Below are positions 5,503-15,404 of a stretch of 64,000 bases of DNA, one piece after another. Numbering within the stretch: the stretch's first letter is position 1; each line of letters begins with the position of its first letter. The notes beneath the pieces are model-generated. The model did no database searches, was not told where the DNA came from, and saw only the letters and a list, made by a program, of their open reading frames with translations. Made by a program: the position numbers and the translations under genes. Source of the stretch: Desulfobulbaceae bacterium (GTDB lineage: Bacteria > Desulfobacterota > Desulfobulbia > Desulfobulbales > Desulfobulbaceae); NCBI GenBank assembly GCA_026987195.1, contig JALSNC010000301.1:1-64000 (forward strand), given 5' to 3'.

Positions 5503-6555
5503 CTAGATCACGGTCAGGCCCACTGTCTCGTCGGTGATGTCGCCGATCTTCACCGCTGTCGTGACGCCGGCCCCGTGAAGCCTTCGGACCAGCTCCGCCG
5601 CCTGACTCTCCGGAACAGCCAGCACCAGGCCGCCCGAGGTCTGCGGGTCGTAGAGCAGTTCCTCTTCCACGCTGTCGAGGTCACGCCGGATCTCCAGCCG
5701 GTGCCGAGCCACCATCTCCCGGTTGGCCCTGTTGCTGCCCGTGGTTTCCCCCTTGCGGTACATGGTCTCGGCATGGGGATAGAAGGGCAGTCGCGCATAC
5801 TCCACCATCACCCGGGCATCGCAGCCGTGGGCCACCTCGAGCAGGTGCCCCAGGATGCCGAACCCGGTGACGTCGGTGCAGGCATGGAGCTCGAAGTCCA
5901 GAGCCGTCTCCATGGCCGGGCCGTTCAGGGCCGCGAGCATGGGCAGGACATCGCGTTCCAGGTCGGCGAAGGCGAGCTTGCCGGAACGGACCGCGTTGAA
6001 GAGCACGCCCGAGCCCAGGGGCTTGGTCAGGATCAGGGCATCGCCGGGACGGGCACCGGCATTGGTGATGATCCGCTCCGGGTGGACCGTGCCGTTGACA
6101 CAGAGGCCGTACTTGGGTTCCTCGTCATCCACGGTATGGCCACCCACCAGGCAGGCCCCGGCCTCCACCACCTTGTCGTGGCCGCCCCGCAGGATATCCT
6201 TCAGCAGGCCCATGTCCAGCTGTTTTGATGGAAACATCACCACGTTGAGGGCTGTCAGCGGCCTGCCGCCCATGGAGTAGACATCCGAGATCGAGTTGGC
6301 CGCCGAGATCTGGCCGAACCAGTAGGGATCGTCCACCGGCGGGGTGATGAAATCCACGGTGCTGATCATGGCGATCTCGTCCGTGAGCCGGTAGACCGCC
6401 GCATCATCAGCCGTCTCGATACCGACCAGCAGGTTGGGGTCGGCCGGCGCCGGCAGGCCTTCGAGCGCGTCCGACAGAGCCGTCGGACCGATCTTCGCGG
6501 CTCAGCCGCAGGTGCGGGCCAGGCTGGTCAGTGTTTTTTTTCTGAATATCCGCAT
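5503..6555 (-). CDS. selD: Selenide, water dikinase, itself a selenoprotein (in-frame TGA = Sec18)
   Basis: SelD makes selenophosphate from selenide and ATP, the selenium donor for selenocysteine and selenouridine. A naive reading starts at 6369, but the same frame continues upstream through one TGA (6502-6504) to ATG at 6555. This adds an N-terminus containing TCG-U-AAKIGP and ADPNLLVGIETADDAAVY, both standard SelD blocks, and the full 350 residues. The TGA sits where other SelD proteins carry catalytic Cys or Sec. Downstream blocks include VDFITPPVDDPYWFGQISA, GGRPLTALNVV and GGHTVDDEEP. A hairpin directly after the TGA fits a bacterial SECIS. A GAAGGG ribosome site precedes ATG 6555. Confidence 0.95.
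6469..6488 (-). promoter_or_regulatory. Candidate SECIS hairpin of selD
   Basis: On the coding strand, 13 bases after the TGA, GTCCGAC and GTCGGAC form a perfect 7-bp stem around the six-base loop GGCTCT. The distance from TGA to loop (about 20 bases) and the G-rich start of the loop fit bacterial SECIS elements recognised by SelB. Confidence 0.7.
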
Positions 6556-14522: not shown

Positions 14523-14686
14523 GATGGCGTCGCAAAAAGTCCGATCTACTGTGTTGTAGCGGGTCTGGCCAATGCTCGACGTACTTCGTTACGCCTCGGC
14601 CTGGCTGACACCGCTACGCCTTGCATATCGAATTTTTATGTGAGCCATCTTTACAGTGAGATGGACTTTTTACAGATCCATCAAGT
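14523..14686. mobile_element. Type III palindromic repeat, copy 1 (164 bp)
   Basis: It begins GATGGCGTCGCAAAAAGTCC and ends GGACTTTTTACAGATCCATC; the two ends are inverted repeats. An inner inverted pair is TTGTAGCGG and CCGCTACGCC. It is about 85% alike with the copy at 42603, and both end shortly before a start codon. Confidence 0.75.
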
Positions 14687-14721: not shown

Positions 14722-15216
14722 ATGGAGAACAGGAGCGCAATGGGCAGGCAGGCCATGGCGGAGCGGGCGGTGGAACTTTTCCTGGCACGGTTTCACTGAA
14801 GCCAGGCCATTCTCGGCGCGTGCGCCGGGCTGTTTCGCGATGAACCGCCACCTCCGGAACTGGTCGCCGCCATGTCCCCCTTTGGCGGCGGCATGGGCTC
14901 GAGCGGTCAGCTCTGCGGCACCCTGGCCGGCGCCCTGGCCGTGATCGGCTTCACCTGGGGCAAGACCGAGCCCAGGGGCCGGGATCACAAACTGATGTGG
15001 AAACTCAGCAACGCCATGGTCGCCCGGTTCGCGGAGATCTGCCAGCCCTACGGCGGCACCGACTGTATCGACATCGCGCGGGTTGACTGGAAGGATGCAG
15101 AGCAGGTGCGGGCCTTTTACAGGGATCCGGACAGTTGCCGCAACAACTGTATCCGGGTGGTACGGGAGACGGCCGCCTCACTCCACGACCTGGTCAGTAC
15201 TGTTGCCCGGAGGTGA
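14722..15216 (+). CDS. C_GCAxxG_C_C family redox selenoprotein (in-frame TGA = Sec26)
   Basis: ATG 14722 opens MENRSAMGRQAMAERAVELF. The frame meets TGA at 14797-14799 and continues with SQAILGACAGLFRDE, MSPFGGGMGSSGQLCGTLAG, then a Cys-rich end with DSCRNNCIRVV. This is the putative redox-active disulfide family whose first conserved cysteine lies in CSQA; here the TGA takes that place (U-SQAIL). The protein is 164 residues, the usual size. A hairpin 12 bases after the TGA fits a SECIS, and the genome uses Sec (see selD). Partner or substrate unknown. Automated annotation would truncate it to start at 14872 or call it a pseudogene. Confidence 0.88.
14812..14829 (+). promoter_or_regulatory. 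Candidate SECIS hairpin of the redox selenoprotein
   Basis: CTCGGCG and CGCCGGG form a 7-bp stem (one T-G wobble) around the loop CGTG. It starts 12 bases after the TGA, the right distance for SelB recognition. Confidence 0.6.
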
Positions 15217-15404
15217 CCGTTCACCGCCATCGGCAATCGTTTTGAATCACCAGTGTTTTCTGATGGCGTCGCAAAAAGTCCGATCTGCTGCGTTGTAGCG
15301 GGTAGGGCCTATGCTCGACGTACTTCAGGTGCGCCTCTTCCTGGCCGCCACCGTTACGCCTTGATTCAGCAGTGCGCCGGCTGTGCGTGATCGCGGCTGG
15401 CCGG
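15213..15404. repeat. Composite of type II MITE and truncated type III repeat
   Basis: A type II left end (GTTCACCGCCATCGGCAATC) starts near 15219. It is interrupted at 15262 by a type III repeat (to about 15363), then resumes with TTCAGCAGTGCGCCGGCTGT and runs into the stop codon of the histidine kinase. This looks like one element inserted in another, the inner one having lost its 3' tail. Confidence 0.6.

What the first reader, a model, noticed from the sequence alone, without database searches (positions are those of the whole stretch)
14722..15216. Hidden selenoprotein of the C_GCAxxG_C_C redox family
An in-frame TGA (14797-14799) replaces the first conserved Cys in the CSQA motif; the frame on both sides is family-like, and a 7-bp hairpin starts 12 bases after the TGA. 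Standard gene finders would report a truncated gene from 14872 or a pseudogene.
Basis: partly seen in the sequence, partly recalled or inferred. Interest (0 to 1): 0.75.

Follow-up and report, generated by a model that had tools for sequence, protein, structure and literature searches.

The report
Selenocysteine redox protein, family known
The in-frame stop codon in this small redox-protein gene is almost certainly read as the rare amino acid selenocysteine, but this protein family was already listed as containing selenoproteins, so it is a well-supported new member rather than a new kind of thing.

Summary
Frame 14722-15216(+) is open except for TGA 14797-14799, and read through it is a C_GCAxxG_C_C protein (PF09719, 76 bits). 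In 90 distinct homologues covering this site the codon is TGA (55) or TGC/TGT (35), never anything else. It is one of only four columns that are Cys/Sec in every one of 59 aligned sequences. The genome has selA, selB, tRNA-Sec(UCA) and two selD genes, each with its own in-frame TGA; one selD is in this window. The hairpin 12 nt after the TGA fits the published bacterial SECIS model and covaries among close relatives. 29 of 54 TGA homologues but only 2 of 35 Cys homologues pass that model. Selenocysteine insertion is therefore very likely. It is not new: NCBIfam names TIGR01909 a "C-GCAxxG-C-C family (seleno)protein", and two reviews list PF09719 among selenoprotein families. Added here: the fold's one credible PDB relative is split-Soret cytochrome c with its "novel iron centre"; in a sister genus the gene sits in the methylmalonyl-CoA operon; and Cys forms accompany loss of selA in one genus. 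What the protein does is inferred, not shown.

The parts
14722..15216 (+). Selenoprotein gene of the C_GCAxxG_C_C family (PF09719), 164 aa with Sec26; the true start may be ATG 14740
   Evidence: relatives start near residue 6-7
14797..14799 (+). In-frame TGA = selenocysteine codon (residue 26), first of the four family cysteines
   Evidence: TGA or TGC/TGT in all 90 distinct homologues; column invariant
14812..14829 (+). SECIS-like hairpin, 7 bp, loop CGUG, 12 nt after the TGA (19 nt from TGA to loop)
   Evidence: fits the published bSECIS model
14914..14916 (+). Conserved Cys65 (CGxxxG motif)
   Evidence: Cys in 59 of 59
15064..15066 (+). Conserved Cys115
   Evidence: Cys in 59 of 59
15148..15150 (+). 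Conserved Cys143
   Evidence: Cys in 59 of 59
5503..6555 (-). selD, selenophosphate synthetase, with its own in-frame TGA at 6502-6504; part of the Sec machinery
   Evidence: 346 bits to TIGR00476 with 1 TGA inside; read-through and hairpin
14523..14623 (+). Upstream copy of a dispersed repeat of about 103 bp that brackets the gene; not part of the selenoprotein
15262..15363 (+). Downstream copy of the same repeat; not part of the selenoprotein

Best explanation
14722-15216 is a selenoprotein gene of the C_GCAxxG_C_C (PF09719) family. During translation the UGA at 14797-14799 is decoded as selenocysteine by Sec-tRNA and SelB, directed by the hairpin 12 nt downstream (inferred from sequence, structure and comparative evidence; not shown biochemically). 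In the folded all-helical protein, Sec26 is one of four invariant chalcogen residues with Cys65, Cys115 and Cys143. I take these to form one redox site, in which Sec26 is the reactive residue or the ligand of an iron centre like that of split-Soret cytochrome c (inferred). It would serve a cytoplasmic redox step of anaerobic carbon metabolism; in sister genera it is encoded within the methylmalonyl-CoA pathway operon (inferred from context only). The confidence given is for selenoprotein identity and Sec insertion; for the redox-site function I would say about 0.6, and for a link to methylmalonyl-CoA metabolism about 0.25.
For: Family: PF09719 76.3 bits against a cut-off of 27, and TIGR01909 48.5 against 47.4. 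Position: 55 TGA and 35 Cys, no other codon, in 90 distinct homologues from 92 matching genomes of the order plus public MAGs. Coding constraint upstream of the TGA too: pairwise differences 0.32/0.14/0.52 at codon positions 1/2/3 over the 16 codons before it. Machinery: selB 384 bits, selA 642, tRNA-Sec 73 bits with anticodon UCA, two Sec-type selD. SECIS: in close relatives 94.5% of cells paired, 3 of 7 pairs changed on both sides, 0 of 500 shuffles as high in score, peak at zero slide; bSECIS model passed by 29/54 Sec, 2/35 Cys and 4.6% of shuffles, Fisher p = 2e-6. Fold: AlphaFold pLDDT 93; only credible PDB match is 1h21, prob 1.00, TM 0.62; profile hit E = 1.3e-4. Operon in relatives.
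Against: No expression or protein data. The window hairpin's energy alone is only modestly better than shuffles (3.4% as low), and 25 of 54 Sec homologues miss the strict bSECIS energy threshold. In the second Sec clade pairing is high (87.5%) but covariation is not above shuffles. The functional part (redox or iron site) rests on a remote homology whose iron ligands I could not inspect. In this genome the gene is not in the methylmalonyl-CoA operon.
Confidence: 0.94

Rival explanations
1. The TGA is a nonsense mutation or an assembly error, and the gene is a pseudogene.
For: Standard ORF calling breaks the frame here; the gene is solitary and bracketed by dispersed repeats.
Against: The same TGA lies at the same codon in 55 distinct homologues from many separately assembled genomes, the rest having Cys; codon-position constraint holds on both sides; full Sec machinery present.
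Confidence: 0.02
2. The real product is the short protein from ATG 14872 (114 aa), and the upstream frame is chance.
For: That ORF is complete and has an ATG.
Against: It would lack the first helices, including the invariant residue 26 and A16/Q28. Cys-type homologues are translated through the region as intact ORFs, and the model is confident there (pLDDT 98 for residues 11-30).
Confidence: 0.02
3. TGA is reassigned genome-wide to another amino acid, or suppressed as Trp or Cys by an ordinary tRNA.
For: None found beyond the read-through itself.
Against: This very gene ends in TGA (15214-15216). The internal TGA replaces Cys only, as expected for Sec, and tRNA-Sec, SelA, SelB and SelD are present.
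Confidence: 0.02

Closest known systems
C-GCAxxG-C-C family (seleno)protein, TIGR01909 / PF09719
   Same: Above the cut-off of both models; four conserved chalcogen positions; family already named as containing selenoproteins and listed (forms 1 and 2) in the selenoproteome reviews PMC13188914 and PMC9312934
   Different: Nothing essential; the closest relatives are a Desulfobulbaceae clade at 61-72% identity. Which published form it is could not be checked.
Split-Soret cytochrome c (PDB 1h21)
   Same: Same core fold (prob 1.00, TM 0.62), profile E = 1.3e-4, Cys65 and probably Cys143 aligned with Cys
   Different: No haem-binding part (about 165 against 247 residues), and Sec in place of a Cys; not a member of the equivalog NF047622 (13.3 bits against a cut-off of 400)
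DVU_1555 family C-GCAxxG-C-C protein, NF045669
   Same: 62.6 bits over nearly the full length
   Different: Below its cut-off of 103, so not a member

Membership tests
C_GCAxxG_C_C (PF09719 / TIGR01909) | Score above the curated cut-off | tested here: met
   76.3 against 27; 48.5 against 47.4
C_GCAxxG_C_C (PF09719 / TIGR01909) | Four conserved Cys (or Sec) | tested here: met
   Positions 26, 65, 115, 143 invariant in 59 sequences
C_GCAxxG_C_C (PF09719 / TIGR01909) | Redox activity | not testable with these tools
   The family itself is annotated only as putative
Bacterial selenoprotein | In-frame UGA at a site that is Cys in homologues | tested here: met
   55 TGA, 35 Cys, 0 other
Bacterial selenoprotein | SECIS hairpin fitting the bSECIS model (loop 3-9 nt, G in its first two positions, 16-37 nt from UGA, at most -7.5 kcal/mol) | tested here: met
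   Loop CGUG, 19 nt, -10.6 kcal/mol; model from PMC13188914; covariation
Bacterial selenoprotein | selA, selB, selD and tRNA-Sec in the genome | tested here: met
Bacterial selenoprotein | Selenium in the protein | not testable with these tools
   Needs 75Se labelling or mass spectrometry
Split-Soret cytochrome c (NF047622) | Score above the equivalog cut-off; two c-type haems | tested here: not met
   13.3 against 400; no CxxCH motif in the 164 residues

The most novel reading that the evidence does not exclude
The four invariant positions, Sec26 included, bind an iron or iron-sulfur centre like the one in split-Soret cytochrome c, so Sec would be a natural selenolate ligand of that centre, in a protein tied to methylmalonyl-CoA metabolism in anaerobic Desulfobulbaceae-type bacteria.
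Probability: 0.15. Interest if true: 0.6.

Novelty: new member of a known kind. Interest (0 to 1): 0.25.

Why it matters
It corrects a gene model that ordinary ORF calling truncates and adds a well-documented Sec/Cys series to a widespread family of unknown function. The remote link to the iron centre of split-Soret cytochrome c and the methylmalonyl-CoA operon context give two concrete, testable leads on what these proteins do and why selenium is kept.

Tried and rejected
Pseudogene, assembly error, downstream start and genome-wide recoding were considered and rejected (see rivals). Whole-segment folding z-scores do not single out the window (z = +0.56), so I relied on a constrained hairpin test and on covariation. 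A conserved neighbourhood in this genome was sought and not found: the gene stands alone between an ECF-sigma-like region and a sensor-kinase-like gene (names from reading the sequence, not searched). Cys-Sec distances could not be measured because no model coordinates are given. Paper searches gave no open text on the iron ligands of 1h21 beyond its title.

Full report
What is there. The frame 14722-15216(+) is open except for one internal TGA at 14797-14799 and ends at TGA 15214-15216. Read through, it is a 164-residue protein matching PF09719 C_GCAxxG_C_C (76.3 bits, cut-off 27) and TIGR01909 'C-GCAxxG-C-C family (seleno)protein' (48.5 bits, cut-off 47.4). ATG 14740 is an alternative start that agrees better with relatives.

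Sec or stop. A public-genome search and a search of 243 genomes of the same order found homologues in 92 genomes. At the aligned codon all carry TGA or TGC/TGT and nothing else: 55 distinct proteins have TGA and 35 Cys. The nearest relatives, 61-72% identical, all have TGA. Over 59 aligned sequences positions 26, 65, 115 and 143 are the only Cys/Sec columns filled throughout, while Cys34, Cys107 and Cys139 are not conserved. The codons just upstream of the TGA evolve like coding sequence. On a tree the Sec and Cys states change at least twice; the bootstrap had not fully settled. A phylum-wide scan found PF09719 in 183 of 297 genomes, many with one in-frame TGA, and nine of the ten TGA cases inspected have it at the first Cys.

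Machinery. The genome (3.8 Mb, 316 contigs) has selB (384 bits), selA (642 bits), tRNA-Sec (73 bits, anticodon UCA) and two selD genes each with an in-frame TGA, one of them at 5503-6555(-) in this window. In genus g6, whose proteins are the Cys form, selA was found in none of five genomes and tRNA-Sec only as marginal matches. Genus g7 has the Cys form but keeps selA and tRNA-Sec.

SECIS. The published bacterial model asks for a 3-9 nt loop with a G in its first two positions, 16-37 nt from the UGA, and at most -7.5 kcal/mol (PMC13188914). The window hairpin (14812-14829, loop CGUG, 19 nt, -10.6 kcal/mol) fits. Of the homologues, 29 of 54 Sec but 2 of 35 Cys sequences pass, against about 5% of shuffles. 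In the close clade the stem is 94.5% paired with three double-changed pairs, no shuffle reaches the covariation score, and sliding the arms destroys it. In the second Sec clade the hairpin is a different one, 87.5% paired but without covariation above shuffles. A third clade has yet another sequence, UUUUCUGC-AGUU-GCAGAAAA, at nearly the same place.

What it may do. AlphaFold gives a confident all-helical model (pLDDT 93). [quoted passage not shown]), agreeing with a profile match at E = 1.3e-4. Cys65 aligns with a Cys there, and Cys143 probably does in a weak second segment. I infer a redox or iron site built from Sec26, Cys65, Cys115 and Cys143. In sister genus g11 the gene lies between methylmalonyl-CoA mutase plus an acetyltransferase and the epimerase, carboxyltransferase and biotin carboxylase genes. 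In this genome mutase and epimerase are about 40 nt apart without it. A PF09719 protein is induced with acetone in Desulfococcus biacutus (PMC4103992). These are leads, not proof of function.

Known or new. The family is in NCBIfam as partly selenoproteins and in reviews PMC9312934 and PMC13188914 as a selenoprotein family, with two forms in the latter. The finding is right and well supported, but it is a new member of a known kind.

Noticed in passing
window 5503-6555(-): selD is itself a selenoprotein gene, with TGA 6502-6504 and a strong hairpin after it; a second Sec-type selD lies on contig C98.
   Followed up: partly
It does not fold better than shuffles.
   Followed up: partly
L138 (G354:C30): A family member with Cys at the first site but an in-frame TGA at another, normally non-Cys site (GIEHUQAMK), followed by a possible hairpin; perhaps a second Sec position.
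   Followed up: no
L133 (G441:C15) and L134 (G438:C13): Family members with one in-frame TAG each, away from the four conserved Cys; pyrrolysine use, error or decay not tested.
   Followed up: no
G041 (4.0 Mb, 2 contigs) / L093: Sec-form gene and a good tRNA-Sec but no selA match at all in a nearly complete genome; unexplained.
   Followed up: no
L122 (G000:C185) against L009: The methylmalonyl-CoA operon of this genome lacks the acetyltransferase and selenoprotein genes that sit between mutase and epimerase in genus g11.
   Followed up: partly
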